From Leuctra nigra (lineage: Eukaryota; Arthropoda; Insecta; Plecoptera; Leuctridae), in assembly GCA_934045905.1 (NCBI GenBank), contig OW203770.1:27847259-27911258 (forward strand): a stretch of DNA of 64,000 nt, given 5' to 3'. Under the pieces are notes generated by a model. It ran no database searches. It was not told the DNA's origin and saw only the letters and a program-made list of their open reading frames with translations. Of this stretch, positions 3,791-63,937 are shown one piece after another. The translations under genes were made by a program, and so were the position numbers. The first letter of the stretch is position 1; each line of letters opens with the position of its first letter.

Positions 3791-4603
3791 GGATCGAACA
3801 AGTGGATTGTATCCGTGTTAATATGGCCGAAGGGTTAATTTTGTTAATACGTTTTATAACGTCTTATTGAGGGGTTTTCAGACGTTTGTTGCTTTTTTGA
3901 TCACGAAGTTGATTTGAGTTCCTAATGACCATGTAGTATGTATGCATGTTAAAATGGCCGAAGGCTTATTTTTGTTAATACGCTTTATAAGGTCTTATTG
4001 AATTGTTTCCAGACGTTAGTTGCTTTTTTGATCACGAAGAAGATTTGAGGTCCAAATGACCATGTGGAATGTATGCGTGTAAATATGGCCGAAGGGTTAA
4101 TTTTGTTAATACGCTATATAACGTCTTATTAAGAGGTTTCCAGATGTTAGTTTCTTTTTTGATCACGAAATTGATTTCAGGTCCAAATGACAATGTGGTA
4201 TGTATGCATGTTAGAATGGCCGAAGGGTTAATTTTGTTCATACGCTTTATAAAGTCTTATTTAGGTGTTTCCAGGCGTTTCAAACTTTTCCAATCTTAAC
4301 ATTGATTTGAGTTCCAAATTACCATATAGTATAGTATGTATGCCTGTTATAATGGCCGAAGTTTTATTATTGTTAATACGCTTTATAACGTCTTATAAAA
4401 ATGTTTCCAGACGTTTGTAGCTTTTTTGATCAAGAAGTTGATTTGAGGTTCAAATGCTCATGAGGTATGTATGCATGTTAATATTGATGAAGGGTTATTT
4501 TTGTTGATAAGCTTGATAACGTCTTATTAAACTGTTTCCAGACGTTTGGTGCTTTTTCGATCTCAAACTTTTTTTGAGTTCCATTTGAACAAGTGGATTG
4601 TAT
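3791..4603 (+). repeat. 131-bp satellite, block 1
   Basis: Tandem monomers of 131-132 bp; the block ATGGCCGA recurs at 3822, 3954, 4085 and 4216. Two monomer subfamilies are mixed: one with GATCACGAAG and AGGTCCAAATGAC, the other with GATCTCGAAG (or GATCTCAAAC), GAGTTCCA and GTGGATTGTAT. The last monomer ends in the target site of the Foldback-like element. Confidence 0.95.
4595..4603 (+). repeat. Target site duplication, left (GGATTGTAT)
   Basis: Nine bases of satellite directly before the element start, repeated at 6421-6429 directly after its end. Nine-base duplications are typical of Drosophila Foldback and of Mutator-like elements. Confidence 0.88.
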
Positions 4604-6420
4604 AGGTCCGTGAAGTTAGCACCGCCCATTAACGCACTAATTATCTTATGTGTGAGATGAATTAGTGCACAATTAGTGCGTTCGATCGGCACTAATTTTA
4701 TAATTAGTGCGTCATCCGTTTCCGAGAAAAACGCACTTTACTATGGGCGGTGCCAACTTCACGCAGCACCGCCCATTGACGCACTAATTTTCAAACCCAC
4801 ACAGGCAATTAGTGCACAATTAGTGCGTTCGATCCCCCCCATTCCCATAATTAGTGCGCACTTACTTTTCGAGTTATTCGTGAATAACCGTGGGCGGTGC
4901 AGCACCGCCCATTGAAAATTTCAAGGTTTTCAGCACGCCATGTTTTAGTGCACAATTAGTGCGTTCGATTCCCCCCATTCCCATAATTAGTGCGCACTTA
5001 CTTTTCGAGTTATTCATGAATAACCGTGGGCGGTGCAGCACCGCCCATTGAAAATTTAAGATTTTCAGCACGCCAAGTTTTAGTGCACAATTAGTGCGTT
5101 CGATCCCCCCAATTCCCATAATTAGTGCGCACTAACTTTTCGAGTTATTCGCAAATAACCTTGGGCGGTGCAGCACCGCCCATTGAAAATTTCAATGTTT
5201 TCAGTACGCCATGTTTTAGTGCACAATTAGTGCGTTAGATCCCCCCCATTCCCATAATTAGTGCGCACTTACTTTTCAAATAATTCGTAAATAACCGTGG
5301 GCGGTGCAGCACCGCCTATTGAAAATTTTAAGGTTTTCAGCATGCCATGTTTTAGTGCACAATTAGTGCGTTCGATCCCCCCCATTCCCATAATTAGTGC
5401 GCACTTACTTTTCGAGTTATTTGTGAATAACCGTGGGCGGTGCAGCACCGCCCATTGAAAATTTCAAGTTTTTCAGTACGCCATGTTTTAGTGCACAATT
5501 AGTGCGTTCGATCCCACCCATTCCCATAATTAGTGTGCACTTACTTTTCGAGTTATTCGTGAAAAACCGTGAGTGGTGCAGCACTCGAAAAGTAAGCACT
5601 CGAACTCGAAAAGTAAGTGCGCACTAATTATAGGAATAGGGGGGATCGAACGCACTAATTGTGCACTAAAACATGGCGTGCTGAAAAACTTGAAATTTTC
5701 AATGGGCGGTGCTGCACCGCCCACGGTTATTCACGAATAACTCGAAAAGTAAGTGCGCACTAATTATGGGAATGGGGGGGGGGATCGAACGCACTAATTG
5801 TGCACTAAAACATGGCATTCTGAAAACCATGAAATTTTCAATGGGCGGTGCTGCACCGCCCACGGTTATTCGCGAATAACTCGAAAAGTTAGTGCGCACT
5901 AATTATGGGAATGGGGGGGATCGAACGCACTAATTGTGCACTAAAACATGGCGTGCTGAAAATCTTAAATTTTCAATGTGCGGTGCTGCACCGCCCACGG
6001 TTATTCACGAATAACTCGAAAAGTAAGTGCGCACTAATTATGGGAATGGGGGGAATCGAACGCACTAATTGTGCACTAAAACATGGCGTGCTGAAAACCT
6101 TAAAATTTTCAATGGGCGGTGCTGCACCGCCCAAGGTTATTCACGAATATCTCGAAAAGTAAGTGCGCACTAATTATGGGAATGGGGGGGATCGAACGCA
6201 CTAATTGTGCACTAATTGCCTGTGTGGGTTTGAAAATTAGTGCGTCAATGGGCGGTGCTGCGTGAAGTTTGCACCGCCCATAATAAAGTGCGTTTTTCAC
6301 GGAAACGGATGACGCACTAATTATAAAATTAGTGCCGATCGAACGCACTAATTGTGCACTAATTCATCCTATACATGAGATAATTAGTGCGTTAATGGGC
6401 GGTGCTAACTTCACGGACCT
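4604..6420. mobile_element. Foldback-like element with long inverted arms of 136-bp subrepeats
   Basis: The element starts AGGTCCGTGAAGTTAGCACC and ends with the exact complement, between 9-bp duplications of GGATTGTAT. Its left arm (about 4604-5583) is a tandem array of about 136-bp subrepeats: GCAGCACC recurs at 4899, 5035, 5170, 5306 and 5442. At about 5584 the orientation flips and the right arm (to 6420) is the reverse complement with fewer units. Each unit has the palindrome GGGCGGTGC-A/T-GCACCGCCC, the near-palindrome GTTATTCGTGAATAAC and several AATTAGTGC motifs. No transposase is encoded, so it is non-autonomous. Long arms of subrepeats with a 9-bp duplication match Foldback/MULE-type elements by structure; family assignment is inference. 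Confidence 0.85.
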
Positions 6421-35215: not shown

Positions 35216-35219
35216 GCCC

Positions 35220-41777: not shown

Positions 41778-42783
41778 GTGTTATTCGTGAAAAACCGTGA
41801 GTGGTGCAGCACTCGAAAAGTAAGCACTCGAACTCGAAAAGTAAGTGCGCACTAATTATAGGAATAGGGGGGATCGAACGCACTAATTGTGCACTAAAAC
41901 ATGGCGTGCTGAAAAACTTGAAATTTTCAATGGGCGGTGCTGCACCGCCCACGGTTATTCACGAATAACTCGAAAAGTAAGTGCGCACTAATTATGGGAA
42001 TGGGGGGGGATCGAACGCACTAATTGTGCACTAAAACATGGCATTCTGAAAACCATGAAATTTTCAATGGGCGGTGCTGCACCGCCCACGGTTATTCCCG
42101 AATAACTCGAAGAGTAAGTGCGCACCAATTATGGGAATGGGGGGGGATCGAACGCACTAATTGTGCACTAAAACATGGCGTACTGAAAACATTGAAATTT
42201 TCAATTGGCGGTGCTGCACCGCCCAAGGTTATTTGCGAATAACTCGAAAAGTTAGTGCGCACTAATTATGGGAATGGGGGGGATCGAACGCACTAATTGT
42301 GCACTAAAACTTGGCGTGCTGAAAATCTTAAATTTTCAATGGGCGGTGCTGCACCGCCCACGGTTATTCATGAATAACTCGAAAAGTAAGTGCGCACTAA
42401 TTATGGGAATGGGGGGAATCGAACGCACTAATTGTGCACCAAAACATGGCGTGCTGAAAACCTTGAAATTTTCAATGGGCGGTGCTGCACCGCCCACGGT
42501 TATTCACGAATAACTCGAAAAGTAAGTGCGCACTAATTATGGGAATGGGGGGGATCGAACGCACTAATTGTGCACTAATTGCCTGTGTGGGTTTGAAAAT
42601 TAGTGCGTCAATGGGCGGTGCTGCGTGAAGTTGGCACCGCCCATAGTAAAGTGCGTTTTTCTCGGAAACGGATGACGCACTAATTATAAAATTAGTGCCG
42701 ATCGAACGCACTAATTGTGCACTAATTCATCCCACACATAAGATAATTAGTGCGTTAATGGGCGGTGCTAACTTCACGGACCT
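41778..42783. mobile_element. Foldback-like element, right arm only
   Basis: Starts at the arm-switch point (TTATTCGTGAAAAACC, as at 5558) and continues through the right arm to CACGGACCT at 42783, followed by the same GGATTGTAT (42784-42792). The left arm is missing. This is where homology with the first duplication copy (5555-6420) resumes. It has one more subrepeat than the first copy. Confidence 0.88.
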
Positions 42784-44230
42784 GGATTGTATCCGTGTAA
42801 ATATGGCCGAAGACTTAATTTTGGTAATACGTTTTATAACGTCTTATTGAGGGGTTTCCAGACGTTTGATGCTTTTTTGATCACGAAGTTGACTTGAGGT
42901 CCAAATGACAATGTGGTATGAATGCATGTTAGTATTGCCGAAGGGTTAATTTTGTTCATACGCTTTATAAAGTCTTATTTAGGTGTTTCGTTTGTACTTG
43001 GAACTTTTGAGTTCCAAATCAACAAGTGGATTGTATGCGTGTAAATATAGCCGAAGGGTTAATATTGGTAATACGTCTCGGTAATATAACGTCTCATTGC
43101 GGGGTTTCCAGATGTTTGTTGCTTTTTTGATCACGAAGTTGATTAGAGTTCCTAATGACCATGTAGTATGTATGCATGTTAGTATTGCCGAAGGGTTAAT
43201 TTTGTTCATACGCTTTATTAAGTCTTATTTAGGTGTTTCCAGGCGTTTGATCCTTTTTAATCTTAACATTGATTTGAGTTCCAAATGACCATGTAGTATA
43301 GTATGTATAACTGTTATAATGGCCAAAGGGATATTTTTGTTAATGCGCTTTATAACGTCTTATTAAAATGTTACCAGACGTTTGGTGCTTTTTCGATCTC
43401 GAAGTTTTTTTGAGTTCCATATGAACAAGTGGACTGTATCCGTGTAAATATGGCCGAAGGATTAATTTTGTTAATACGCTATAAAACGTCTTATTAAGGG
43501 GTTTCCAGATGTTAGTTGCTTTTTTGATCACGAAGTTGATTTCAGGTCCAAATGACAATGTGGTATGTATGCATGTTAGTATGGCCGAAGGGTTAATTTT
43601 GTTCATACGCTTTATAACGTCATATTAACGGGTTTCCATACGTTTGGTGCTTTTTTGATCACAAAGTAGATTTGAGGTCGAAATGACCATGTGGTATGTA
43701 TGCGTGTAAATATGGCCGAAGGGTTAATTTTGTTAATACGCTATATAACGTCTTATTAAGAGGTTTTCAGATGTTAGTTTCTTTTTTGATCACGAAGTTG
43801 ATTTCAGGTCCAAATGACAATGTGGTATGTATGCATGTTAGAATGGCCGAAGGGTTAATTTTGTTCATACGCTTTATAAAGTCTTATTTAGGTGTTTCCA
43901 GGCGTTTCAAACTTTTCCAACCTTAACATTGATTTGAGTTCCAAATTACCATATAGTATAGTATGTATGCCTGTTATAATGGCCGAAGTTTTATTATTGT
44001 TAATACGCTTTATAACGTCTTATAAAAATGTTTCCAGACGTTTGTAGCTATTTTGATCAAGAAATTGATTTGAGGTTCAAATGCTCATGAGGTATGTATG
44101 CATGTTAATATTGATGAAGGGTTATTTTTGTTGATAAGCTTGATAACGTCTTATTAAACTGTTTCCAGACGTTTGGTGCTTTTTCGATCTCAAACTTTTT
44201 TTGAGTTCCATTTGAACAAGTGGATTGTAT
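42784..44230 (+). repeat. 131-bp satellite, 11-monomer block before the higher-order array
   Basis: Same monomer order as the satellite part of each higher-order unit, but 1447 bp instead of about 1573: one monomer fewer near 42915. It also differs at 43070 (ACGTCTCGGTAATATAACG) and has CCGAAGGATTAA where X units have CCGAATATATTAA. It looks like an ancestral or edge unit. Confidence 0.9.
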
Positions 44231-47200
44231 AGGTCCGTGAAGTTAGCACCGCCCATTAACGCACTAATTATCTTATGTGTGGGATGAATTAGTGCACAAT
44301 TAGTGCGTTCGATCGGCACTAATTTTATAATTAGTGCGTCATCCGTTTCCGAGAAAAACGCACTTTACTATGGGCGGTGCCAACTTCACGCAGCACCGCC
44401 CATTGACGCACTAATTTTCAAACCCACACAGGCAATTAGTGCACAATTAGTGCGTTCGATCCCCCCCATTTCCATAATTAGTGCGCACTTACTTTTCGAG
44501 TTATTCGTGAATAACCGTGGGCGGTGCAGCACCGCCCATTGAAAATTTCAAGGTTTTCAGCACGCCATGTTTTAGTGCACAATTAGTGCGTTCGATTCCC
44601 CCCATTCCCATAATTAGTGCGCACTTACTTTTCGAGTTATTCATGAATAACCGTAGGCGGTGCAGCACCGCCCATTGAAAATTTAAGATTTTCAGCACGC
44701 CAAGTTTTAGTGCACAATTAGTGCGTTCGATCCCCCCCATTCCCATAATTAGTGCGCACTAACTTTTCGAGTTATTCGCAAATAACCTTGGGCGGTGCAC
44801 ACCGCCCAACACCGCCCATGGGAATGGGGGGGATCTAACGCACTAATTGTGCACTAAAACATGGCGTACTGAAAACATTGAAATAGGGGATAATAGTGCG
44901 CACTAATTATAGGAATAGGGGATATCGAACGCACTAATTGTGCACTAAAACATGGCGTGCTGAAAAACTTGAAATTTTCAATGGGCGGTGCTGCACCGCC
45001 CACGGTTATTCACGAATAACTCGAAAAGTAAGTGCGCACTAATTATGGGAATGGGGGGGGATCGAACGCACTAATTGTGCACTAAAACATGGCATTCTGA
45101 AAACCATGAAATTTTCAATAGCGGTGCTGCACCGCCCACGGTTATTCCCGAATAACTCGAAGAGTAAGTGCGCACCAATTATGGGAATGGGGGGGATCGA
45201 ACGCACTAATTGTGCACTAAAACATGGCGTACTGAAAACATTGAAATTTTCAATTGGCGGTGCTGCACCGCCCACGGTTATTCGCGAATAACTCGAAAAG
45301 TTAGTGCGCACTAATTATGGGAATGGGGGGGATCGAACGCACTAATTGTGCACTAAAACATGGCGTGCTGAAAATCTTAAATTTTCAATGTGCGGTGCTG
45401 CACCGCCCACGGTTATTCACGAATAACTCGAAAAGTAAGTGCGCACTAATTATGGGAATGGGGGGAATCGAACGCACTAATTGTGCACTAAAACATGGCG
45501 TGCTGAAAACCTTGAAATTTTCAATGGGCGGTGCTGCACCGCCCAAGGTTATTCACGAATATCTCGAAAAGTAAGTGCGCACTAATTAAGGGAATGGGGG
45601 GGATCGAACGCACTAATTGTGCACTAATTGCCTGTGTGGGTTTGAAAATTAGTGCGTCAATGGGCGGTGCTGCGTGAAGTTGGCACCGCCCATAGTAAAG
45701 TGCGTTTTTCACGGAAACGGATGACGCACTAATTATAAAATTAGTGCCGATCGAACGCACTAATTGTGCACTAATTCATCCTATACATGAGATAATTAGT
45801 GCGTTAATGGGCGGTGCTAACTTCACGGACCTGGATTGTATCCGTGTAAATATGGCCGAAGACTTAATTTTGGTAATACGTTTTATAACGTCTTATTGAG
45901 GGGTTTCCAGACGTTTGATGCTTTTTTGATCACGAAGTTGACTTGAGGTCCAAATGACAATGTGGTATGTATGCATGTGAGTATGGCCGATGGGTTAATT
46001 TTGTTAACACGCTTTATAACGTCTTATTGAGGGGTTTCCAGACGTTTGATGCTTTTTTGATCACGAAGTTGACTTGAGGTCCAAATGACAATGTGGTATG
46101 AATGCATGTTAGTATTGCCGAAGGGTTAATTTTGTTCATACGCTTTATAAAGTCTTATTTAGGTGTTTCGTTTGTACTTGGAACTTTTGAGTTCCAAATC
46201 AACAAGTGGATTGTATGCGTGTAAATATAGCCGAAGGGTTAATTTTGGTAATACGTTTTATAACGTCTCATTGCGGGGTTTCCAGATGTTTGTTGCTTTT
46301 TTGATCACGAAGTTGATTAGAGTTCCTAATGACCATGTAGTATGTATGCATGTTAGTATTGCCGAATGGTTAATTTTGTTCATACGCTTTATTAAGTCTT
46401 ATTTAGGTGTTTCCAGGCGTTTGATCCTTTTTAATCTTAACATTGATTTGAGTTCCAAATGACCATGTAGTATAGTATGTATAACTGTTATAATGGCCAA
46501 AGGGATATTTTTGTTAATGCGCTTTATAACGTCTTATTAAAATGTTACCAGACGTTTGGTGCTTTTTCGATCTCGAAGTTTTTTTGAGTTCCATATGAAC
46601 AAGTGGACTGTATCCGTGTAAATATGGCCGAATATATTAATTTTGTTAATACGCTATAAAACGTCTTATTAAGGGGTTTCCAGATGTTAGTTGCTTTTTT
46701 GATCACGAAGTTGATTTCAGGTCCAAATGACAATGTGGTATGTATGCATGTTAGTATGGCCGAAGGGTTAATTTTGTTCATACGCTTTATAACGTCATAT
46801 TAACGGGTTTCCATACGTTTGGTGCTTTTTTGATCACAAAGTAGATTTGAGGTCGAAATGACCATGTGGTATGTATGCGTGTAAATATGGCCGAAGGGTT
46901 AATTTTGTTAATACGCTATATAACGTCTTATTAAGAGGTTTTCAGATGTTAGTTTCTTTTTTGATCACGAAGTTGATTTCAGGTCCAAATGACAATGTGG
47001 TATGTATGCATGTTAGAATGGCCGAAGGGTTAATTTTGTTCATACGCTTTATAAAGTCTTATTTAGGTGTTTCCAGGCGTTTCAAACTTTTCCAACCTTA
47101 ACATTGATTTGAGTTCCAAATTACCATATAGTATAGTATGTATGCCTGTTATAATGGCCGAAGTTTTATTATTGTTAATACGCTTTATAACGTCTTATAA

Positions 47201-47405
47201 AAATGTTTCCAGACGTTTGTAGCTTTTTTGATCAAGAAATTGATTTGAGGTTCAAATGCTCATGAGGTATGTATGCATGTTAATATTGATGAAGGGTTAT
47301 TTTTGTTGATAAGCTTGATAACGTCTTATTAAACTGTTTCCAGACGTTTGGTGCTTTTTCGATCTCAAACTTTTTTTGAGTTCCATTTGAACAAGTGGAT
47401 TGTAT
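44231..47405. repeat. Higher-order unit 1 (type X)
   Basis: Foldback part 44231-45832, satellite 45833-47405; 3175 bp. The Foldback centre (about 44785-44930) is rearranged compared with the element at 4604: it has GGGCGGTGCACACCGCCC and AATAGGGGATAATAGTGCGC, and the left arm is two subrepeats shorter. Satellite marker CCGAATATATTAA. Confidence 0.95.
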
Positions 47406-50400
47406 AGGTCCGTGAAGTTAGCACCGCCCATTAACGCACTAATTATCTTATGTGTGGGATGAATTAGTGCACAATTAGTGCGTTCGATCGGCACTAATTT
47501 TATAATTAGTGCGTCATCCGTTTCCGAGAAAAACGCACTTTACTATGGGCGGTGCCAACTTCACGCAGCACCGCCCATTGACGCACTAATTTTCAAACCC
47601 ACACAGGCAATTAGTGCACAATTAGTGCGTTCGATCCCCCCCATTTCCATAATTAGTGCGCACTTACTTTTCGAGTTATTCGTGAATAACCGTGGGCGGT
47701 GCAGCACCGCCCATTGAAAATTTCAAGGTTTTCAGCACGCCATGTTTTAGTGCACAATTAGTGCGTTCGATTCCCCCCATTCCCATAATTAGTGCGCACT
47801 TACTTTTCGAGTTATTCATGAATAACCGTAGGCGGTGCAGCACCGCCCATTGAAAATTTAAGATTTTCAGCACGCCAAGTTTTAGTGCACAATTAGTGCG
47901 TTCGATCCCCCCCATTCCCATAATTAGTGCGCACTAACTTTTCGAGTTATTCGCAAATAACCTTGGGCGGTGCACACCGCCCAACACCGCCCATGGGAAT
48001 GGGGGGGATCTAACGCACTAATTGTGCACTAAAACATGGCGTACTGAAAACATTGAAATAGGGGATAATAGTGCGCACTAATTATAGGAATAGGGGATAT
48101 CGAACGCACTAATTGTGCACTAAAACATGGCGTGCTGAAAAACTTGAAATTTTCAATGGGCGGTGCTGCACCGCCCACGGTTATTCACGAATAACTCGAA
48201 AAGTAAGTGCGCACTAATTATGGGAATGGGGGGGGATCGAACGCACTAATTGTGCACTAAAACATGGCATTCTGAAAACCATGAAATTTTCAATAGCGGT
48301 GCTGCACCGCCCACGGTTATTCCCGAATAACTCGAAGAGTAAGTGCGCACCAATTATGGGAATGGGGGGGATCGAACGCACTAATTGTGCACTAAAACAT
48401 GGCGTACTGAAAACATTGAAATTTTCAATTGGCGGTGCTGCACCGCCCACGGTTATTCGCGAATAACTCGAAAAGTTAGTGCGCACTAATTATGGGAATG
48501 GGGGGGATCGAACGCACTAATTGTGCACTAAAACATGGCGTGCTGAAAATCTTAAATTTTCAATGTGCGGTGCTGCACCGCCCACGGTTATTCACGAATA
48601 ACTCGAAAAGTAAGTGCGCACTAATTATGGGAATGGGGGGAATCGAACGCACTAATTGTGCACTAAAACATGGCGTGCTGAAAACCTTGAAATTTTCAAT
48701 GGGCGGTGCTGCACCGCCCAAGGTTATTCACGAATATCTCGAAAAGTAAGTGCGCACTAATTAAGGGAATGGGGGGGATCGAACGCACTAATTGTGCACT
48801 AATTGCCTGTGTGGGTTTGAAAATTAGTGCGTCAATGGGCGGTGCTGCGTGAAGTTGGCACCGCCCATAGTAAAGTGCGTTTTTCACGGAAACGGATGAC
48901 GCACTAATTATAAAATTAGTGCCGATCGAACGCACTAATTGTGCACTAATTCATCCTATACATGAGATAATTAGTGCGTTAATGGGCGGTGCTAACTTCA
49001 CGGACCTGGATTGTATCCGTGTAAATATGGCCGAAGACTTAATTTTGGTAATACGTTTTATAACGTCTTATTGAGGGGTTTCCAGACGTTTGATGCTTTT
49101 TTGATCACGAAGTTGACTTGAGGTCCAAATGACAATGTGGTATGTATGCATGTGAGTATGGCCGATGGGTTAATTTTGTTAACACGCTTTATAACGTCTT
49201 ATTGAGGGGTTTCCAGACGTTTGATGCTTTTTTGATCACGAAGTTGACTTGAGGTCCAAATGACAATGTGGTATGAATGCATGTTAGTATTGCCGAAGGG
49301 TTAATTTTGTTCATACGCTTTATAAAGTCTTATTTAGGTGTTTCGTTTGTACTTGGAACTTTTGAGTTCCAAATCAACAAGTGGATTGTATGCGTGTAAA
49401 TATAGCCGAAGGGTTAATTTTGGTAATACGTTTTATAACGTCTCATTGCGGGGTTTCCAGATGTTTGTTGCTTTTTTGATCACGAAGTTGATTAGAGTTC
49501 CTAATGACCATGTAGTATGTATGCATGTTAGTATTGCCGAATGGTTAATTTTGTTCATACGCTTTATTAAGTCTTATTTAGGTGTTTCCAGGCGTTTGAT
49601 CCTTTTTAATCTTAACATTGATTTGAGTTCCAAATGACCATGTAGTATAGTATGTATAACTGTTATAATGGCCAAAGGGATATTTTTGTTAATGCGCTTT
49701 ATAACGTCTTATTAAAATGTTACCAGACGTTTGGTGCTTTTTCGATCTCGAAGTTTTTTTGAGTTCCATATGAACAAGTGGACTGTATCCGTGTAAATAT
49801 GGCCGAATATATTAATTTTGTTAATACGCTATAAAACGTCTTATTAAGGGGTTTCCAGATGTTAGTTGCTTTTTTGATCACGAAGTTGATTTCAGGTCCA
49901 AATGACAATGTGGTATGTATGCATGTTAGTATGGCCGAAGGGTTAATTTTGTTCATACGCTTTATAACGTCATATTAACGGGTTTCCATACGTTTGGTGC
50001 TTTTTTGATCACAAAGTAGATTTGAGGTCGAAATGACCATGTGGTATGTATGCGTGTAAATATGGCCGAAGGGTTAATTTTGTTAATACGCTATATAACG
50101 TCTTATTAAGAGGTTTTCAGATGTTAGTTTCTTTTTTGATCACGAAGTTGATTTCAGGTCCAAATGACAATGTGGTATGTATGCATGTTAGAATGGCCGA
50201 AGGGTTAATTTTGTTCATAGGCTTTATAAAGTCTTATTTAGGTGTTTCCAGGCGTTTCAAACTTTTCCAACCTTAACATTGATTTGAGTTCCAAATTACC
50301 ATATAGTATAGTATGTATGCCTGTTATAATGGCCGAAGTTTTATTATTGTTAATACGCTTTATAACGTCTTATAAAAATGTTTCCAGACGTTTGTAGCTT

Positions 50401-50580
50401 TTTTGATCAAGAAATTGATTTGAGGTTCAAATGCTCATGAGGTATGTATGCATGTTAATATTGATGAAGGGTTATTTTTGTTGATAAGCTTGATAACGTC
50501 TTATTAAACTGTTTCCAGACGTTTGGTGCTTTTTCGATCTCAAACTTTTTTTGAGTTCCATTTGAACAAGTGGATTGTAT
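47406..50580. repeat. Higher-order unit 2 (type X)
   Basis: Foldback part 47406-49007, satellite 49008-50580; 3175 bp. Private change TTCATAGGCTTTAT (ATAGG for ATACG) near 50216. Confidence 0.95.
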
Positions 50581-53500
50581 AGGTCCGTGAAGTTAGCACC
50601 GCCCATTAACGCACTAATTATCTTATGTGTGGGATGAATTAGTGCACAATTAGTGCGTTCGATCGGCACTAATTTTATAATTAGTGCGTCATCCGTTTCC
50701 GAGAAAAACGCACTTTACTATGGGCGGTGCCAACTTCACGCAGCACCGCCCATTGACGCACTAATTTTCAAACCCACACAGGCAATTAGTGCACAATTAG
50801 TGCGTTCGATCCCCCCCATTTCCATAATTAGTGCGCACTTACTTTTCGAGTTATTCGTGAATAACCGTGGGCGGTGCAGCACCGCCCATTGAAAATTTCA
50901 AGGTTTTCAGCACGCCATGTTTTAGTGCACAATTAGTGCGTTCGATTCCCCCCATTCCCATAATTAGTGCGCACTTACTTTTCGAGTTATTCATGAATAA
51001 CCGTAGGCGGTGCAGCACCGCCCATTGAAAATTTAAGATTTTCAGCACGCCAAGTTTTAGTGCACAATTAGTGCGTTCGATCCCCCCCATTCCCATAATT
51101 AGTGCGCACTAACTTTTCGAGTTATTCGCAAATAACATTGGGCGGTGCACACCGCCCAACACCGCCCATGGGAATGGGGGGGATCTAACGCACTAATTGT
51201 GCACTAAAACATGGCGTACTGAAAACATTGAAATAGGGGATAATAGTGCGCACTAATTATAGGAATAGGGGATATCGAACGCACTAATTGTGCACTAAAA
51301 CATGGCGTGCTGAAAAACTTGAAATTTTCAATGGACGGTGCTGCACCGCCCACGGTTATTCACGAATAACTCGAAAAGTAAGTGCGCACTAATTATGGGA
51401 ATGGGGGGGGATCGAACGCACTAATTGTGCACTAAAACATGGCATTCTGAAAACCATGAAATTTTCAATAGCGGTGCTGCACCGCCCACGGTTATTCCCG
51501 AATAACTCGAAGAGTAAGTGCGCACCAATTATGGGAATGGGGGGGATCGAACGCACTAATTGTGCACTAAAACATGGCGTACTGAAAACATTGAAATTTT
51601 CAATTGGCGGTGCTGCACCGCCCACGGTTATTCGCGAATAACTCGAAAAGTTAGTGCGCACTAATTATGGGAATGGGGGGGATCGAACGCACTAATTGTG
51701 CACTAAAACATGGCGTGCTGAAAATCTTAAATTTTCAATGGGCGGTGCTGCACCGCCCACGGTTATTCACGAATAACTCGAAAAGTAAGTGCGCACTAAT
51801 TATGGGAATGGGGGGAATCGAACGCACTAATTGTGCACTAAAACATGGCGTGCTGAAAACCTTGAAATTTTCAATGGGCGGTGCTGCACCGCCCAAGGTT
51901 ATTCACGAATATCTCGAAAAGTAAGTGCGCACTAATTATGGGAATGGGGGGGATCGAACGCACTAATTGTGCACTAATTGCCTGTGTGGGTTTGAAAATT
52001 AGTGCGTCAATGGGCGGTGCTGCGTGAAGTTAGCACCGCCCATAGTAAAGTGCGTTTTTCACGGAAACGGATGACGCACTAATTATAAAATTAGTGCCGA
52101 TCGAACGCACTAATTGTGCACTAATTCATCCTATACATGAGATAATTAGTGCGTTAATGGGCGGTGCTAACTTCACGGACCTGGATTGTATCCGTGTAAA
52201 TATGGCCGAAGACTTAATTTTGGTAATACGTTTTATAACGTCTTATTGAGGGGTTTCCAGACGTTTGATGCTTTTTTGATCACGAAGTTGACTTGAGGTC
52301 CAAATGACAATGTGGTATGTATGCATGTGAGTATGGCCGATGGGTTAATTTTGTTAACACGCTTTATAACGTCTTATTGAGGGGTTTCCAGACGTTTGAT
52401 GCTTTTTTGATCACGAAGTTGACTTGAGGTCCAAATGACAATGTGGTATGAATGCATGTTAGTATTGCCGAAGGGTTAATTTTGTTCATACGCTTTATAA
52501 AGTCTTATTTAGGTGTTTCGTTTGTACTTGGAACTTTTGAGTTCCAAATCAACAAGTGGATTGTATGCGTGTAAATATAGCCGAAGGGTTAATTTTGGTA
52601 ATACGTTTTATAACGTCTCATTGCGGGGTTTCCAGATGTTTGTTGCTTTTTTGATCACGAAGTTGATTAGAGTTCCTAATGACCATGTAGTATGTATGCA
52701 TGTTAGTATTGCCGAAGGGTTAATTTTGTTCATACGCTTTATTAAGTCTTATTTAGGTGTTTCCAGGCGTTTGATCCTTTTTAATCTTAACATTGATTTG
52801 AGTTCCAAATGACCATGTAGTATAGTATGTATAACTGTTATAATGGCCAAAGGGATATTTTTGTTAATGCGCTTTATAACGTCTTATTAAAATGTTACCA
52901 GACGTTTGGTGCTTTTTCGATCTCGAAGTTTTTTTGAGTTCCATATGAACAAGTGGACTGTATCCGTGTAAATATGGCGAAGGATTAATTTTGTTAATAC
53001 GCTATAAAACGTCTTATTAAGGGGTTTCCAGATGTTAGTTGCTTTTTTGATCACGAAGTTGATTTCAGGTCCAAATGACAATGTGGTATGTATGCATGTT
53101 AGTATGGCCGAAGGGTTAATTTTGTTCATACGCTTTATAACGTCATATTAACGGGTTTCCATACGTTTGGTGCTTTTTTGATCACAAAGTAGATTTGAGG
53201 TCGAAATGACCATGTGGTATGTATGCGTGTAAATATGGCCGAAGGGTTAATTTTGATTATACGCTATATAACGTCTTATTAAGAGGTTTTCAGATGTTAG
53301 TTTCTTTTTTGATCACGAAGTTGATTTCAGGTCCAAATGACAATGTGGTATGTATGCATGTTAGAATGGCCGAAGGGTTAATTTTGTTCATACGCTTTAT
53401 AAAGTCTTATTTAGGTGTTTCCAGGCGTTTCAAACTTTTCCAACCTTAACATTGATTTGAGTTCCAAATTACCATATAGTATAGTATGTATGCCTGTTAT

Positions 53501-53753
53501 AATGGCCGAAGTTTTATTATTGTTAATACGCTTTATAACGTCTTATAAAAATGTTTCCAGACGTTTGTAGCTATTTTGATCAAGAAATTGATTTGAGGTT
53601 CAAATGCTCATGAGGTATGTATGCATGTTAATATTGATGAAGGGTTATTTTTGTTGATAAGCTTGATAACGTCTTATTAAACTGTTTCCAGACGTTTGGT
53701 GCTTTTTCGATCTCAAACTTTTTTTGAGTTCCATTTGAACAAGTGGATTGTAT
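50581..53753. repeat. Higher-order unit 3 (type Y)
   Basis: Foldback part 50581-52182, satellite 52183-53753; 3173 bp. Y markers: AATAACATTGGGCGG, ATGGACGGTGCTGC, GAAGTTAGCACC in the right arm, satellite ATGGCGAAGGATTAA (2 bp shorter than X) and TTTGATTATACGC. Confidence 0.95.
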
Positions 53754-56700
53754 AGGTCCGTGAAGTTAGCACCGCCCATTAACGCACTAATTATCTTATG
53801 TGTGGGATGAATTAGTGCACAATTAGTGCGTTCGATCGGCACTAATTTTATAATTAGTGCGTCATCCGTTTCCGAGAAAAACGCACTTTACTATGGGCGG
53901 TGCCAACTTCACGCAGCACCGCCCATTGACGCACTAATTTTCAAACCCACACAGGCAATTAGTGCACAATTAGTGCGTTCGATCCCCCCCATTTCCATAA
54001 TTAGTGCGCACTTACTTTTCGAGTTATTCGTGAATAACCGTGGGCGGTGCAGCACCGCCCATTGAAAATTTCAAGGTTTTCAGCACGCCATGTTTTAGTG
54101 CACAATTAGTGCGTTCGATTCCCCCCATTCCCATAATTAGTGCGCACTTACTTTTCGAGTTATTCATGAATAACCGTAGGCGGTGCAGCACCGCCCATTG
54201 AAAATTTAAGATTTTCAGCACGCCAAGTTTTAGTGCACAATTAGTGCGTTCGATCCCCCCCATTCCCATAATTAGTGCGCACTAACTTTTCGAGTTATTC
54301 GCAAATAACCTTGGGCGGTGCACACCGCCCAACACCGCCCATGGGAATGGGGGGGATCTAACGCACTAATTGTGCACTAAAACATGGCGTACTGAAAACA
54401 TTGAAATAGGGGATAATAGTGCGCACTAATTATAGGAATAGGGGATATCGAACGCACTAATTGTGCACTAAAACATGGCGTGCTGAAAAACTTGAAATTT
54501 TCAATGGGCGGTGCTGCACCGCCCACGGTTATTCACGAATAACTCGAAAAGTAAGTGCGCACTAATTATGGGAATGGGGGGGGATCGAACGCACTAATTG
54601 TGCACTAAAACATGGCATTCTGAAAACCATGAAATTTTCAATAGCGGTGCTGCACCGCCCACGGTTATTCCCGAATAACTCGAAGAGTAAGTGCGCACCA
54701 ATTATGGGAATGGGGGGGATCGAACGCACTAATTGTGCACTAAAACATGGCGTACTGAAAACATTGAAATTTTCAATTGGCGGTGCTGCACCGCCCACGG
54801 TTATTCGCGAATAACTCGAAAAGTTAGTGCGCACTAATTATGGGAATGGGGGGGATCGAACGCACTAATTGTGCACTAAAACATGGCGTGCTGAAAATCT
54901 TAAATTTTCAATGTGCGGTGCTGCACCGCCCACGGTTATTCACGAATAACTCGAAAAGTAAGTGCGCACTAATTATGGGAATGGGGGGAATCGAACGCAC
55001 TAATTGTGCACTAAAACATGGCGTGCTGAAAACCTTGAAATTTTCAATGGGCGGTGCTGCACCGCCCAAGGTTATTCACGAATATCTCGAAAAGTAAGTG
55101 CGCACTAATTAAGGGAATGGGGGGGATCGAACGCACTAATTGTGCACTAATTGCCTGTGTGGGTTTGAAAATTAGTGCGTCAATGGGCGGTGCTGCGTGA
55201 AGTTGGCACCGCCCATAGTAAAGTGCGTTTTTCACGGAAACGGATGACGCACTAATTATAAAATTAGTGCCGATCGAACGCACTAATTGTGCACTAATTC
55301 ATCCTATACATGAGATAATTAGTGCGTTAATGGGCGGTGCTAACTTCACGGACCTGGATTGTATCCGTGTAAATATGGCCGAAGACTTAATTTTGGTAAT
55401 ACGTTTTATAACGTCTTATTGAGGGGTTTCCAGACGTTTGATGCTTTTTTGATCACGAAGTTGACTTGAGGTCCAAATGACAATGTGGTATGTATGCATG
55501 TGAGTATGGCCGATGGGTTAATTTTGTTAACACGCTTTATAACGTCTTATTGAGGGGTTTCCAGACGTTTGATGCTTTTTTGATCACGAAGTTGACTTGA
55601 GGTCCAAATGACAATGTGGTATGAATGCATGTTAGTATTGCCGAAGGGTTAATTTTGTTCATACGCTTTATAAAGTCTTATTTAGGTGTTTCGTTTGTAC
55701 TTGGAACTTTTGAGTTCCAAATCAACAAGTGGATTGTATGCGTGTAAATATAGCCGAAGGGTTAATTTTGGTAATACGTTTTATAACGTCTCATTGCGGG
55801 GTTTCCAGATGTTTGTTGCTTTTTTGATCACGAAGTTGATTAGAGTTCCTAATGACCATGTAGTATGTATGCATGTTAGTATTGCCGAATGGTTAATTTT
55901 GTTCATACGCTTTATTAAGTCTTATTTAGGTGTTTCCAGGCGTTTGATCCTTTTTAATCTTAACATTGATTTGAGTTCCAAATGACCATGTAGTATAGTA
56001 TGTATAACTGTTATAATGGCCAAAGGGATATTTTTGTTAATGCGCTTTATAACGTCTTATTAAAATGTTACCAGACGTTTGGTGCTTTTTCGATCTCGAA
56101 GTTTTTTTGAGTTCCATATGAACAAGTGGACTGTATCCGTGTAAATATGGCCGAATATATTAATTTTGTTAATACGCTATAAAACGTCTTATTAAGGGGT
56201 TTCCAGATGTTAGTTGCTTTTTTGATCACGAAGTTGATTTCAGGTCCAAATGACAATGTGGTATGTATGCATGTTAGTATGGCCGAAGGGTTAATTTTGT
56301 TCATACGCTTTATAACGTCATATTAACGGGTTTCCATACGTTTGGTGCTTTTTTGATCACAAAGTAGATTTGAGGTCGAAATGACCATGTGGTATGTATG
56401 CGTGTAAATATGGCCGAAGGGTTAATTTTGTTAATACGCTATATAACGTCTTATTAAGAGGTTTTCAGATGTTAGTTTCTTTTTTGATCACGAAGTTGAT
56501 TTCAGGTCCAAATGACAATGTGGTATGTATGCATGTTAGAATGGCCGAAGGGTTAATTTTGTTCATACGCTTTATAAAGTCTTATTTAGGTGTTTCCAGG
56601 CGTTTCAAACTTTTCCAACCTTAACATTGATTTGAGTTCCAAATTACCATATAGTATAGTATGTATGCCTGTTATAATGGCCGAAGTTTTATTATTGTTA

Positions 56701-56928
56701 ATACGCTTTATAACGTCTTATAAAAATGTTTCCAGACGTTTGTAGCTTTTTTGATCAAGAAATTGATTTGAGGTTCAAATGCTCATGAGGTATGTATGCA
56801 TGTTAATATTGATGAAGGGTTATTTTTGTTGATAAGCTTGATAACGTCTTATTAAACTGTTTCCAGACGTTTGGTGCTTTTTCGATCTCAAACTTTTTTT
56901 GAGTTCCATTTGAACAAGTGGATTGTAT
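53754..56928. repeat. Higher-order unit 4 (type X)
   Basis: Foldback part 53754-55355, satellite 55356-56928; 3175 bp. Markers as units 1 and 2; 6348 bp after unit 2. Confidence 0.95.
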
Positions 56929-59900
56929 AGGTCCGTGAAGTTAGCACCGCCCATTAACGCACTAATTATCTTATGTGTGGGATGAATTAGTGCACAATTA
57001 GTGCGTTCGATCGGCACTAATTTTATAATTAGTGCGTCATCCGTTTCCGAGAAAAACGCACTTTACTATGGGCGGTGCCAACTTCACGCAGCACCGCCCA
57101 TTGACGCACTAATTTTCAAACCCACACAGGCAATTAGTGCACAATTAGTGCGTTCGATCCCCCCCATTTCCATAATTAGTGCGCACTTACTTTTCGAGTT
57201 ATTCGTGAATAACCGTGGGCGGTGCAGCACCGCCCATTGAAAATTTCAAGGTTTTCAGCACGCCATGTTTTAGTGCACAATTAGTGCGTTCGATTCCCCC
57301 CATTCCCATAATTAGTGCGCACTTACTTTTCGAGTTATTCATGAATAACCGTAGGCGGTGCAGCACCGCCCATTGAAAATTTAAGATTTTCAGCACGCCA
57401 AGTTTTAGTGCACAATTAGTGCGTTCGATCCCCCCCATTCCCATAATTAGTGCGCACTAACTTTTCGAGTTATTCGCAAATAACATTGGGCGGTGCACAC
57501 CGCCCAACACCGCCCATGGGAATGGGGGGGATCTAACGCACTAATTGTGCACTAAAACATGGCGTACTGAAAACATTGAAATAGGGGATAATAGTGCGCA
57601 CTAATTATAGGAATAGGGGATATCGAACGCACTAATTGTGCACTAAAACATGGCGTGCTGAAAAACTTGAAATTTTCAATGGACGGTGCTGCACCGCCCA
57701 CGGTTATTCACGAATAACTCGAAAAGTAAGTGCGCACTAATTATGGGAATGGGGGGGGATCGAACGCACTAATTGTGCACTAAAACATGGCATTCTGAAA
57801 ACCATGAAATTTTCAATAGCGGTGCTGCACCGCCCACGGTTATTCCCGAATAACTCGAAGAGTAAGTGCGCACCAATTATGGGAATGGGGGGGATCGAAC
57901 GCACTAATTGTGCACTAAAACATGGCGTACTGAAAACATTGAAATTTTCAATTGGCGGTGCTGCACCGCCCACGGTTATTCGCGAATAACTCGAAAAGTT
58001 AGTGCGCACTAATTATGGGAATGGGGGGGATCGAACGCACTAATTGTGCACTAAAACATGGCGTGCTGAAAATCTTAAATTTTCAATGGGCGGTGCTGCA
58101 CCGCCCACGGTTATTCACGAATAACTCGAAAAGTAAGTGCGCACTAATTATGGGAATGGGGGGAATCGAACGCACTAATTGTGCACTAAAACATGGCGTG
58201 CTGAAAACCTTGAAATTTTCAATGGGCGGTGCTGCACCGCCCAAGGTTATTCACGAATATCTCGAAAAGTAAGTGCGCACTAATTATGGGAATGGGGGGG
58301 ATCGAACGCACTAATTGTGCACTAATTGCCTGTGTGGGTTTGAAAATTAGTGCGTCAATGGGCGGTGCTGCGTGAAGTTAGCACCGCCCATAGTAAAGTG
58401 CGTTTTTCACGGAAACGGATGACGCACTAATTATAAAATTAGTGCCGATCGAACGCACTAATTGTGCACTAATTCATCCTATACATGAGATAATTAGTGC
58501 GTTAATGGGCGGTGCTAACTTCACGGACCTGGATTGTATCCGTGTAAATATGGCCGAAGACTTAATTTTGGTAATACGTTTTATAACGTCTTATTGAGGG
58601 GTTTCCAGACGTTTGATGCTTTTTTGATCACGAAGTTGACTTGAGGTCCAAATGACAATGTGGTATGTATGCATGTGAGTATGGCCGATGGGTTAATTTT
58701 GTTAACACGCTTTATAACGTCTTATTGAGGGGTTTCCAGACGTTTGATGCTTTTTTGATCACGAAGTTGACTTGAGGTCCAAATGACAATGTGGTATGAA
58801 TGCATGTTAGTATTGCCGAAGGGTTAATTTTGTTCATACGCTTTATAAAGTCTTATTTAGGTGTTTCGTTTGTACTTGGAACTTTTGAGTTCCAAATCAA
58901 CAAGTGGATTGTATGCGTGTAAATATAGCCGAAGGGTTAATTTTGGTAATACGTTTTATAACGTCTCATTGCGGGGTTTCCAGATGTTTGTTGCTTTTTT
59001 GATCACGAAGTTGATTAGAGTTCCTAATGACCATGTAGTATGTATGCATGTTAGTATTGCCGAAGGGTTAATTTTGTTCATACGCTTTATTAAGTCTTAT
59101 TTAGGTGTTTCCAGGCGTTTGATCCTTTTTAATCTTAACATTGATTTGAGTTCCAAATGACCATGTAGTATAGTATGTATAACTGTTATAATGGCCAAAG
59201 GGATATTTTTGTTAATGCGCTTTATAACGTCTTATTAAAATGTTACCAGACGTTTGGTGCTTTTTCGATCTCGAAGTTTTTTTGAGTTCCATATGAACAA
59301 GTGGACTGTATCCGTGTAAATATGGCGAAGGATTAATTTTGTTAATACGCTATAAAACGTCTTATTAAGGGGTTTCCAGATGTTAGTTGCTTTTTTGATC
59401 ACGAAGTTGATTTCAGGTCCAAATGACAATGTGGTATGTATGCATGTTAGTATGGCCGAAGGGTTAATTTTGTTCATACGCTTTATAACGTCATATTAAC
59501 GGGTTTCCATACGTTTGGTGCTTTTTTGATCACAAAGTAGATTTGAGGTCGAAATGACCATGTGGTATGTATGCGTGTAAATATGGCCGAAGGGTTAATT
59601 TTGATTATACGCTATATAACGTCTTATTAAGAGGTTTTCAGATGTTAGTTTCTTTTTTGATCACGAAGTTGATTTCAGGTCCAAATGACAATGTGGTATG
59701 TATGCATGTTAGAATGGCCGAAGGGTTAATTTTGTTCATACGCTTTATAAAGTCTTATTTAGGTGTTTCCAGGCGTTTCAAACTTTTCCAACCTTAACAT
59801 TGATTTGAGTTCCAAATTACCATATAGTATAGTATGTATGCCTGTTATAATGGCCGAAGTTTTATTATTGTTAATACGCTTTATAACGTCTTATAAAAAT

Positions 59901-60101
59901 GTTTCCAGACGTTTGTAGCTTTTTTGATCAAGAAATTGATTTGAGGTTCAAATGCTCATGAGGTATGTATGCATGTTAATATTGATGAAGGGTTATTTTT
60001 GTTGATAAGGTTGATAACGTCTTATTAAACTGTTTCCAGACGTTTGGTGCTTTTTCGATCTCAAACTTTTTTTGAGTTCCATTTGAACAAGTGGATTGTA
60101 T
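56929..60101. repeat. Higher-order unit 5 (type Y)
   Basis: Foldback part 56929-58530, satellite 58531-60101; 3173 bp. Carries all Y markers of unit 3, at exactly 6348 bp distance. Confidence 0.95.
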
Positions 60102-63100
60102 AGGTCCGTGAAGTTAGCACCGCCCATTAACGCACTAATTATCTTATGTGTGGGATGAATTAGGGCACAATTAGTGCGTTCGATCGGCACTAATTTTATA
60201 ATTAGTGCGTCATCCGTTTCCGAGAAAAACGCACTTTACTATGGGCGGTGCCAACTTCACGCAGCACCTCCCATTGACGCACTAATTTTCAAACCCACAC
60301 AGGCAATTAGTGCACAATTAGTGCGTTCGATCCCCCCCATTCCCATAATTAGTGCGCACTTACTTTTCGAGTTATTCGTGAATAACCGTGGGCGGTGCAG
60401 CACCGCCCATTGAAAATTTCAAGGTTTTCAGCACGCCATGTTTTAGTGCACAATTAGTGCGTTCGATTCCCCCCATTCCCATAATTAGTGCGCACTTACT
60501 TTTCGAGTTATTCATGAATAACCGTAGGCGGTGCAGCACCGCCCATTGAAAATTTAAGATTTTCAGCACGCCAAGTTTTAGTGCACAATTAGTGCGTTCG
60601 ATCCCCCCCATTCCCATAATTAGTGCGCACTAACTTTTCGAGTTATTCGCAAATAACCTTGGGCGGTGCACACCGCCCAACACCGCCCATGGGAATGGGG
60701 GGATCTAACGCACTAATTGTGCACTAAAACATGGCGTACTGAAAACATTGAAATAGGGGATAATAGTGCGCACTAATTATAGGAATAGGGGATATCGAAC
60801 GCACTAATTGTGCACTAAAACATGGCGTGCTGAAAAACTTGAAATTTTCAATGGGCGGTGCTGCACCGCCCACGGTTATTCACGAATAACTCGAAAAGTA
60901 AGTGCGCACTAATTATGGGAATGGGGGGGGATCGAACGCACTAATTGTGCACTAAAACATGGCATTCTGAAAACCATGAAATTTTCAATAGCGGTGCTGC
61001 ACCGCCCACGGTTATTCCCGAATAACTCGAAGAGTAAGTGCGCACCAATTATGGGAATGGGGGGGATCGAACGCACTAATTGTGCACTAAAACATGGCGT
61101 ACTGAAAACATTGAAATTTTCAATTGGCGGTGCTGCACCGCCCACGGTTATTCGCGAATAACTCGAAAAGTTAGTGCGCACTAATTATGGGAATGGGGGG
61201 GATCGAACGCACTAATTGTGCACTAAAACATGGCGTGCTGAAAATCTTAAATTTTCAATGTGCGGTGCTGCACCGCCCACGGTTATTCACGAATAACTCG
61301 AAAAGTAAGTGCGCACTAATTATGGGAATGGGGGGAATCGAACGCACTAATTGTGCACTAAAACATGGCGTGCTGAAAACCTTGAAATTTTCAATGGGCG
61401 GTGCTGCACCGCCCAAGGTTATTCACGAATATCTCGAAAAGTAAGTGCGCACTAATTAAGGGAATGGGGGGGATCGAACGCACTAATTGTGCACTAATTG
61501 CCTGTGTGGGTTTGAAAATTAGTGCGTCAATGGGCGGTGCTGCGTGAAGTTGGCACCGCCCATAGTAAAGTGCGTTTTTCACGGAAACGGATGACGCACT
61601 AATTATAAAATTAGTGCCGATCGAACGCACTAATTGTGCACTAATTCATCCTATACATGAGATAATTAGTGCGTTAATGGGCGGTGCTAACTTCACGGAC
61701 CTGGATTGTATCCGTGTAAATATGGCCGAAGACTTAATTTTGGTAATACGTTTTATAACGTCTTATTGAGGGGTTTCCAGACGTTTGATGCTTTTTTGAT
61801 CACGAAGTTGACTTGAGGTCCAAATGACAATGTGGTATGTATGCATGTGAGTATGGCCGATGGGTTAATTTTGTTAACACGCTTTATAACGTCTTATTGA
61901 GGGGTTTCCAGACGTTTGATGCTTTTTTGATCACGAAGTTGACTTGAGGTCCAAATGACAATGTGGTATGAATGCATGTTAGTATTGCCGAAGGGTTAAT
62001 TTTGTTCATACGCTTTATGAAGTCTTATTTAGGTGTTTCGTTTGTACTTGGAACTTTTGAGTTCCAAATCAACAAGTGGATTGTATGCGTGTAAATATAG
62101 CCGAAGGGTTAATTTTGGTAATACGTTTTATAACGTCTCATTGCGGGGTTTCCAGATGTTTGTTGCTTTTTTGATCACGAAGTTGATTAGAGTTCCTAAT
62201 GACCATGTAGTATGTATGCATGTTAGTATTGCCGAATGGTTAATTTTGTTCATACGCTTTATTAAGTCTTATTTAGGTGTTTCCAGGCGTTTGATCCTTT
62301 TTAATCTTAACATTGATTTGAGTTCCAAATGACCATGTAGTATAGTATGTATAACTGTTATAATGGCCAAAGGGATATTTTTGTTAATGCGCTTTATAAC
62401 GTCTTATTAAAATGTTACCAGACGTTTGGTGCTTTTTCGATCTCGAAGTTTTTTTGAGTTCCATATGAACAAGTGGACTGTATCCGTGTAAATATGGCCG
62501 AATATATTAATTTTGTTAATACGCTATAAAACGTCTTATTAAGGGGTTTCCAGATGTTAGTTGCTTTTTTGATCACGAAGTTGATTTCAGGTCCAAATGA
62601 CAATGTGGTATGTATGCATGTTAGTATGGCCGAAGGGTTAATTTTGTTCATACGCTTTATAACGTCATATTAACGGGTTTCCATACGTTTGGTGCTTTTT
62701 TGATCACAAAGTAGATATGAGGTCGTAATGACCATGTGGTATGTATGCGTGTAAATATGGCCGAAGGGTTAATTTTGTTAATACGCTATATAACGTCTTA
62801 TTAAGAGGTTTTCAGATGTTAGTTTCTTTTTTGATCACGAAGTTGATTTCAGGTCCAAATGACAATGTGGTATGTATGCATGTTAGAATGGCCGAAGGGT
62901 TAATTTTGTTCATACGCTTTATAAAGTCTTATTTAGGTGTTTCCAGGCGTTTCAAACTTTTCCAATCTTAACATTGATTTGAGTTCCAAATTACCATATA
63001 GTATAGTATGTATGCCTGTTATAATGGCCGAAGTTTTATTATTGTTAATACGCTTTATAACGTCTTATAAAAATGTTTCCAGACGTTTGTAGCTTTTTTG

Positions 63101-63275
63101 ATCAAGAAATTGATTTGAGGTTCAAATGCTCATGAGGTATGTATGCATGTTAATATTGATGAAGGGTTATTTTTGTTGATAAGCTTGATAACGTCTTATT
63201 AAACTGTTTCCAGACGTTTGGTGCTTTTTCGATCTCAAACTTTTTTTGAGTTCCATTTGAACAAGTGGATTGTAT
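60102..63275. repeat. Higher-order unit 6 (type X)
   Basis: Foldback part 60102-61702 (one G fewer in a G run near 60697), satellite 61703-63275; 3174 bp. Private changes include TTAGGGCACAATTAG near 60161 and CACCTCCC near 60266. Confidence 0.95.
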
Positions 63276-63937
63276 AGGTCCGTGAAGTTAGCACCGCCCA
63301 TTAACGCACTAATTATCTTATGTGTGGGATGAATTAGTGCACAATTAGTGCGTTCGATCGGCACTAATTTTATAATTAGTGCGTCATCCGTTTCCGAGAA
63401 AAACGCACTTTACTATGGGCGGTGCCAACTTCACGCAGCACCGCCCATTGACGCACTAATTTTCAAACCCACACAGGCAATTAGTGCACAATTAGTGCGT
63501 TCGATCCCCCCCATTCCCATAATTAGTGCGCACTTACTTTTCGAGTTATTCGTGAATAACCGTGGGCGGTGCAGCACCGCCCATTGAAAATTTCAAGGTT
63601 TTCAGCACGCCATGTTTTAGTGCACAATTAGTGCGTTCGATTCCCCCCATTCCCATAATTAGTGCGCACTTACTTTTCGAGTTATTCGTGAATAACCGTG
63701 GGCGGTGCAGCACCGCCCATTGAAAATTTCAAGGTTTTCAGCACGCCATGTTTTAGTGCACAATTAGTGCGTTCGATTCCCCCCATTCCCATAATTAGTG
63801 CGCACTTACTTTTCGAGTTATTCATAAATAACCGTGGGCGGTGCAGCACCGCCCATTGAAAATTTTAAGGTTTTCAGCATGCCATGTTTTAGTGCACAAT
63901 TAGTGCGTTCGATCCCCCCCATTCCCATAATTAGTGC
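63276..63937. mobile_element. Broken Foldback-like element at the array edge
   Basis: Left arm only. Unlike the six units it keeps the subrepeat order of the element at 4604 (including TTTTAAGGTTTTCAGCATGCC). It stops inside CATAATTAGTGC and is fused to satellite ATGTTAATATGGCCGAG at a TGC/GTGC microhomology. Confidence 0.9.

What the first reader, a model, noticed from the sequence alone, without database searches (positions are those of the whole stretch)
44231..63937. A transposon captured as part of a 3.17-kb satellite higher-order repeat
Six full tandem units join a 1.6-kb Foldback-like palindrome to twelve 131-bp monomers, with identical insertion junctions in all units. Higher-order repeats are normally made of satellite monomers only; here half of each unit is an inverted-repeat transposon, so each unit can form a 1.6-kb hairpin. 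The palindromes could drive the amplification through breakage, fold-back priming or rolling-circle copying. Unit structure is seen directly; mechanism and any centromere role are inference.
Basis: partly seen in the sequence, partly recalled or inferred. Interest (0 to 1): 0.88.

Follow-up and report, generated by a model that had tools for sequence, protein, structure and literature searches.

The report
Transposon locked into satellite tandem units
A hairpin-shaped jumping element landed once in a chromosome's satellite DNA and was then copied six times in a row together with the twelve satellite repeats beside it, apparently by ordinary misaligned recombination in the satellite and not by the hairpin itself.

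Summary
At 44231-63275 there are six full 3,173-3,175 bp units, 99.4-100% identical, each a 1,601-1,602 bp foldback (FB) element plus twelve satellite monomers; broken units flank them. The FB is a mobile element: 320 exact 40-bp ends genome-wide; 20 of 26 dispersed copies examined have perfect 9-bp target duplications, no two alike. The copies in this satellite share one duplication, GGATTGTAT; the left junction occurs 10 times, all on this contig. An unoccupied paralogue of the site lies 76 kb downstream. So: one insertion, then copying. The founding tandem junction lies inside satellite monomer m8, in register, joining right-flank to left-flank satellite, not in the palindrome. A TE-bearing duplication on C1 carries a transposon without long palindromic arms. 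Palindrome-driven founding is therefore not supported. Unexpected: all six amplified FBs lack the palindrome centre, kept by 27 of 30 other FBs tested, and the array's left end is an FB broken at its stem-loop boundary. Most likely: satellite exchange co-amplified a passenger transposon that had lost its hairpin centre. Centromere role untested.

The parts
44231..63275 (+). Six full 3.17-kb composite units U1-U6 (FB + 12 monomers), order of variants A A B A B A'
   Evidence: starts, lengths, pairwise mismatches, variant columns
44231..45832 (.). FB element of U1 (1,602 bp): arms 44231-44799 and 45264-45832, 98% complementary, 464 nt between; palindrome centre missing
45833..47405 (+). Satellite part of U1: monomers m1-m12 (131,131,113,131,130,136,132,131,131,136,131,131 bp)
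46838..46861 (+). Founding tandem junction: switch from right-flank satellite (R8) to left-flank satellite (L2/L3) inside m8, between 46842 and 46843; present in U0-U5 exactly and in U6 with two mismatches
44222..44230 (+). Target-site duplication GGATTGTAT, left copy (right copy 45833-45841); same in all six units
41781..42783 (.). Half FB of unit U0: right arm plus centre spacer; left arm missing from the stem-loop boundary
42784..44230 (+). Satellite part of U0: m1, m3-m12 (m2 lost); carries the founding junction
63276..63937 (.). Truncated FB of unit U7: left arm with four 136-bp units, then direct junction to satellite
4604..6420 (.). Copy A of the same FB insertion outside the array (1,817 bp, centre kept)
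3808..4598 (+). Left flank of copy A: monomers L1-L6, of which L3-L6 match m9-m12 (98.5-100%)

Best explanation
A non-autonomous foldback transposon (about 205-bp unique ends, arms of 136-bp tandem units, 9-bp target duplication) inserted once into a 131-bp satellite on contig C9. [Shown: target duplication, unoccupied paralogue, single-contig distribution of the junction.] An out-of-register homologous exchange between satellite monomers right and left of the insertion (unequal sister exchange or break-induced replication; the sequence cannot tell which) made a tandem duplication whose unit is FB + 12 monomers. [Junction shown; process inferred.] One unit then lost the FB's palindromic centre, and that unit expanded to six by further out-of-register exchange at 3.17 and perhaps 6.35 kb. 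[Order inferred from U0 and U7, whose FBs are of older form.] The FB is a passenger; its hairpin was not needed to found the array, though loss of its centre may have made expansion tolerable.
For: The same target duplication at every C9 copy with both ends, and its one remaining side at U0 and U7; left junction found 10 times genome-wide, all on C9; joined flanks match an unoccupied paralogue at about window position 139.8-140.3 kb, 508 of 529 columns, no gaps, one copy of the 9-mer. Dispersed FBs: 26 examined, TSD perfect in 20, one mismatch in 4, two mismatches in 1, absent in 1. Junction: of 34 sites telling right from left flank before the switch 33 say right; of 61 after it 60 say left; monomer phase 101 on one side and 102 on the other (positions, monomer starts). 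No other m8-m9 neighbour pair at 95% or more among 465 plus-strand monomers outside the array. The junction 56-mer occurs exactly only in U0-U5, and in U6 with two mismatches, both strands of the genome searched. Interior homogeneous, end units different.
Against: The two flanks come from separate segmental copies (left from A, B, C; right from B, C), not from an unamplified ancestor, so the founding state is inferred. One satellite place (C9:27868398) matches the junction 56-mer with one mismatch and twelve more on C6, C9 and C139 with two, besides U6; at 27868398 the neighbours are not m8 and m9, the others were not examined except 27884615, which is a left-flank copy. The switch point may be uncertain by some tens of bases. 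Four of the 34 right-type sites lie at the alignment edge. Minus-strand satellite blocks and a few short ones in the 204 kb were not decomposed into monomers. Exchange and break-induced replication cannot be told apart.
Confidence: 0.82

Rival explanations
1. Palindrome-driven amplification: hairpin or cruciform breakage in the FB, fold-back priming or rolling-circle copying created and expanded the array.
For: The FB arms fold strongly (500 of 1,602 nt given, no shuffled control at this length). The left array end is an FB cut at its stem-loop boundary and the right end lies inside an FB arm, as breakage at palindromes would give.
Against: The founding junction is satellite to satellite, in register, 1,010 bp after one FB and 563 bp before the next. 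The amplified FBs are the ones that lost the palindrome centre (0 of 6 keep it), while the FBs of A, B, C and U0, which keep it, were not multiplied in short tandem. A C1 transposon without long palindromic arms was duplicated with its satellite, though only to two copies. Later expansion steps left no junction that could be mapped, so a role of the palindrome there is not excluded.
Confidence: 0.12
2. Repeated independent insertion of the FB into the same site of a pre-existing 12-mer repeat (target preference).
For: FB ends are near identical genome-wide, so insertions could be recent.
Against: All six units lack the centre in the same way and the units differ at few columns; FBs of U1, U3 and U6 are 99.7% alike. 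Dispersed copies use different 9-mers. No FB-free 12-mer with this monomer order was found among the plus-strand monomers decomposed.
Confidence: 0.02
3. Assembly artefact: one or two real units expanded by the assembler.
For: U1 and U4 are identical and U2 differs from them by one base; reads were not available.
Against: Diagnostic variants place A, B and A' units in a definite order; the broken end units are distinct; there is no N in the 204 kb.
Confidence: 0.06

Closest known systems
Tetris foldback transposon and TIR-220 satellite, Drosophila virilis (PMC4079207; outline, abstract and passages seen)
   Same: Non-autonomous foldback with an outer flanking domain and tandem units in the arms (about 220 bp there, 136 bp here), target duplications 8-10 bp there and 9 bp here; tied to satellite DNA.
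   Different: There the arm repeats themselves become the satellite; here the whole element is a passenger inside units of an unrelated satellite.
Tandem composite repeats of ape genomes (PMC11168930; three passages seen)
   Same: Tandem units of mixed repeat kinds, found by self dot plot; that they combine TEs with satellites is recalled, not in the passages.
   Different: The passages name no foldback element, no datable single insertion and no mapped founding crossover.
Unequal exchange and break-induced replication models of higher-order repeats (PMC8997354; passages seen)
   Same: Out-of-register copying gives multi-monomer units.
   Different: As described in those passages the models concern monomers; here a transposon is carried along.
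TE insertions in satellite arrays: ATHILA in Arabidopsis (secondary mention in PMC12046899, passages; primary paper not held) and Drosophila ananassae subgroup (PMC11917152, passages)
   Same: TEs invade satellite arrays and are subject to their turnover.
   Different: The passages speak of sporadic interruption or invasion and purging, not of a regular TE-bearing unit.

Membership tests
Foldback (FB) transposon | Long terminal inverted repeats with internal tandem repeats | tested here: met
   arms with 136-bp units; the copy in L025 is a 1,950-bp palindrome at 97.5%
Foldback (FB) transposon | Target-site duplication of about 8-10 bp at dispersed sites | tested here: met
   9 bp; perfect in 20 of 26, one mismatch in 4, two in 1, none in 1 (L047)
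Foldback (FB) transposon | Dispersed multicopy family | tested here: met
   166 + 154 exact 40-bp ends, reversed control 0; places listed on C1 to C5 before the list was cut
Foldback (FB) transposon | Mobilised by a Mutator-type transposase | not tested
   searches for PF10551 did not complete
Higher-order repeat of a satellite | Units far more alike than monomers within a unit | tested here: met
   99.4-100% between units; mean 78.4% within
Higher-order repeat of a satellite | Unit made of satellite monomers only | tested here: not met
   half of each unit is FB
Composite tandem repeat (TE + satellite; definition recalled) | TE and satellite in one tandemly repeated unit | tested here: met
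Centromeric array | CENP-A (CENH3) occupancy | not testable with these tools
   only position: 3,014 satellite hits, of which the 100 listed lie on C1, C4, C5, C6, C8, C9, one cluster each except one outlier on C4

The most novel reading that the evidence does not exclude
Loss of the palindrome centre licensed the expansion: an intact FB palindrome breaks at its hairpin tip and caps or shortens tandem units (U0 is an FB cut at its stem-loop boundary), whereas the one unit whose FB lost its centre could be copied to six. The array would then be a natural experiment on how long palindromes limit satellite growth.
Probability: 0.25. Interest if true: 0.72.

Novelty: new variant of a known kind. 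Interest (0 to 1): 0.5.

Why it matters
It gives a step-by-step, sequence-resolved case of a transposon becoming a regular component of a satellite higher-order repeat: unoccupied site, insertion, founding crossover, internal loss of the palindrome centre, expansion. This makes two questions testable: whether satellite homology alone suffices to amplify passengers, and whether long palindromes limit tandem growth unless their centre is lost.

Tried and rejected
Palindrome-driven founding: rejected after mapping the junction. Pre-existing FB-free 12-mer: looked for among 465 plus-strand monomers outside the array; only partial blocks found (m3-m6, m10-m12); minus-strand blocks were not decomposed. 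FB in the satellite of other contigs at the same junction: none with up to two mismatches. 'Centre loss is unique to the array': rejected, 3 of 26 dispersed FBs (L042, L044, L046, picked for being short) also lack the centre. Transposase search not answered. Paper searches for a precedent; they are word searches of one library and do not show that no precedent is in print.

Full report
What was checked. The window is contig C9:27,847,259-27,911,258 of an unnamed 536-Mb genome in 144 contigs. I stitched it with 60 kb upstream and 80 kb downstream, 204 kb in all, without N; positions above 64000 or below 1 are window coordinates carried on.

The array. Six full units begin at 44231, 47406, 50581, 53754, 56929 and 60102 and are 3,173-3,175 bp long. 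Their 15 pairwise comparisons show 0 to 20 mismatches. U1, U2 and U4 are nearly the same (0-1 mismatch), U3 and U5 form a second type (2 mismatches between them, 13-14 from the first), and U6 is a third (7-8 from the first, 20 from the second): A A B A B A'. Each unit is one FB element of 1,601-1,602 bp and twelve monomers of 113-136 bp. The twelve monomers of a unit are on average 78.4% alike (66 pairs). The array is closed on the left by U0 (a half FB at 41781-42783 and eleven monomers, m2 missing) and on the right by U7 (662 bp of FB left arm, then satellite at 63938). At the threshold used (250 bp, 96%, offset up to 12 kb, plus strand) no other array of this kind lies in the 204 kb: 9 other pairs, the longest 746 bp and inside FB copies. 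Longer segmental duplications, at least 93% alike and up to 12 kb, do occur.

The element. FB ends read AGGTCCGTGAAGTTAGC...; about 205 bp of unique end are followed in each arm by a variable number of 136-bp units, and copies with an intact middle have a short centre spacer. The exact 40-bp end occurs 320 times in the genome (166 forward, 154 reverse; reversed control 0); the places listed before the list was cut are on C1 to C5. I examined 26 dispersed copies: 18 taken from the best-scoring or first-listed ones with both ends, and 8 chosen mostly for unusual length. Of their 9-bp target duplications 20 are perfect, 4 have one mismatch, 1 has two, and 1 copy (L047) has none; the 25 are all different from one another. 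No complete open reading frame of 180 aa or more lies in the array. Structure and 9-bp duplication are those of foldback elements; Tetris of Drosophila virilis (PMC4079207, passages seen) is the closest described relative in architecture that I found. Membership of the Mutator superfamily was not tested.

One insertion. The FBs in the C9 satellite are flanked by the same GGATTGTAT, twice where both ends exist, once at the broken U0 and U7. The left junction (34 bp, up to 2 mismatches) occurs 10 times in the whole genome, all on C9: copies A (4604), B (86359), C (113062) and the seven left junctions of U1-U7. At about 140.2 kb there is a satellite stretch of the m10-m11-m12 type with one copy of the 9-mer and no FB; the joined FB flanks match it at 508 of 529 columns without gaps. 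This is the unoccupied paralogue of the site, 76 kb beyond the array.

How the tandem unit arose. In the single copies B and C the monomers right of the FB are R1-R8 = m1-m8 (95-100%), then R9 departs (88%); left of the FB in A, B and C they are L3-L6 = m9-m12 (98.5-100%), while L2 departs (86-87%). In the unit, m8 is followed by m9. Between 46593 and 46842, 33 of 34 informative sites agree with the right flank (four of them at the alignment edge); from 46843 on, 60 of 61 agree with the left flank. The two parental positions have the same monomer phase to one base. The join lies 1,010 bp after one FB and 563 bp before the next. Among 465 other plus-strand monomers no m8-m9 pair (both at 95% or more) exists (minus-strand blocks not decomposed). 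The 56-bp junction string, searched on both strands of the genome, is exact only in U0-U5; U6 has two mismatches; one satellite place on C9 (27868398), whose neighbours are not m8 and m9, has one mismatch, and twelve further places have two (six on C6, two on C9, four on C139). The founding step is thus best read as an in-register crossover between satellite monomers on the two sides of the FB. Reciprocal unequal exchange and break-induced replication, the two models laid out in PMC8997354 (passages), would leave the same join.

What happened to the FB. The centre spacer is present in copies A, B, C and in U0 (4 of 4), and in 23 of 26 dispersed copies, but in 0 of the 6 amplified units; U7 is broken before the centre would come and was not counted. 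The unit's FB has 3 left and 5 right arm units counted by one motif, and a 67-nt fragment in right-arm orientation at 44818-44884 where the left arm stops. U0 carries the founding junction and still has the centre, so the centre was lost after the tandem duplication, in the lineage that expanded (inference). U0's own FB stops where its left arm meets the centre spacer (41781). That is what cleavage at a hairpin loop would leave, but it is one case seen after the fact. Three dispersed copies lost their centre without being amplified, so centre loss is at most permissive.

A comparison on another contig. In the same satellite on C1, a 5.43-kb stretch is tandemly duplicated at 98.7% (59205710-59211128 and 59211149-59216576). 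It includes a 2.48-kb element with about 48-bp terminal inverted repeats (83% alike) at a TA site. Its left junction is found twice; its right end only once, the second copy being cut short at the edge of the duplication. A TE can thus be carried in a tandem satellite duplication without long palindromic arms. It reached two copies, not six. A satellite-only duplication of 1,985 bp at 99.3% lies nearby.

Is it a centromere? A 44-bp core of the monomer occurs 3,014 times with up to three mismatches (control 0); the 100 places listed lie on C1, C4, C5, C6, C8 and C9, in one cluster per contig but for one outlier on C4, and related places lie on C6 and C139. This fits a centromeric or pericentromeric satellite but proves nothing.

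Verdict. The captured element is a foldback by structure and target duplication, inserted once. The amplification began in the satellite, not in the palindrome. Whether losing the palindrome centre permitted the later expansion is the open and most interesting point; the data are one event.

Noticed in passing
C1:59205710-59216576 (L050, L053, L054): Second TE-bearing tandem duplication in the same satellite: 5.43 kb, 98.7%, with a 2.48-kb TIR element at a TA site.
   Followed up: partly
21670-29922: LTR retrotransposon with 347-bp LTRs 97.4% alike and a gag domain at 22144-22881 (PF03732); LTR pairs of like spacing at -13055, 67244 and 94457, in segmentally duplicated stretches.
   Followed up: partly
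25763-25888: 5S rRNA-like sequence inside that retrotransposon, 39.7 bits against a cut-off of 38.
   Followed up: no
1-4135 and 33338-37468: Segmental duplication, 98.9%; similar stretches at about 81 and 108 kb. Copies A, B and C of the FB insertion lie on such segments.
   Followed up: partly
32939-35184 (-): Reverse transcriptase (PF00078) and endonuclease (PF14529) pieces, probably of a non-LTR retrotransposon.
   Followed up: no
37469-41780: 4.3 kb of other sequence, with 118-bp tandem repeats, a TTC run and an inverted repeat, sits where U0's missing left FB arm should be; origin not resolved.
   Followed up: partly
G000:C13:51651552-51652892: Near-complete COX1 copy on a 51.7-Mb contig besides the 17.6-kb contig C144, probably a nuclear mitochondrial insert.
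   Followed up: no
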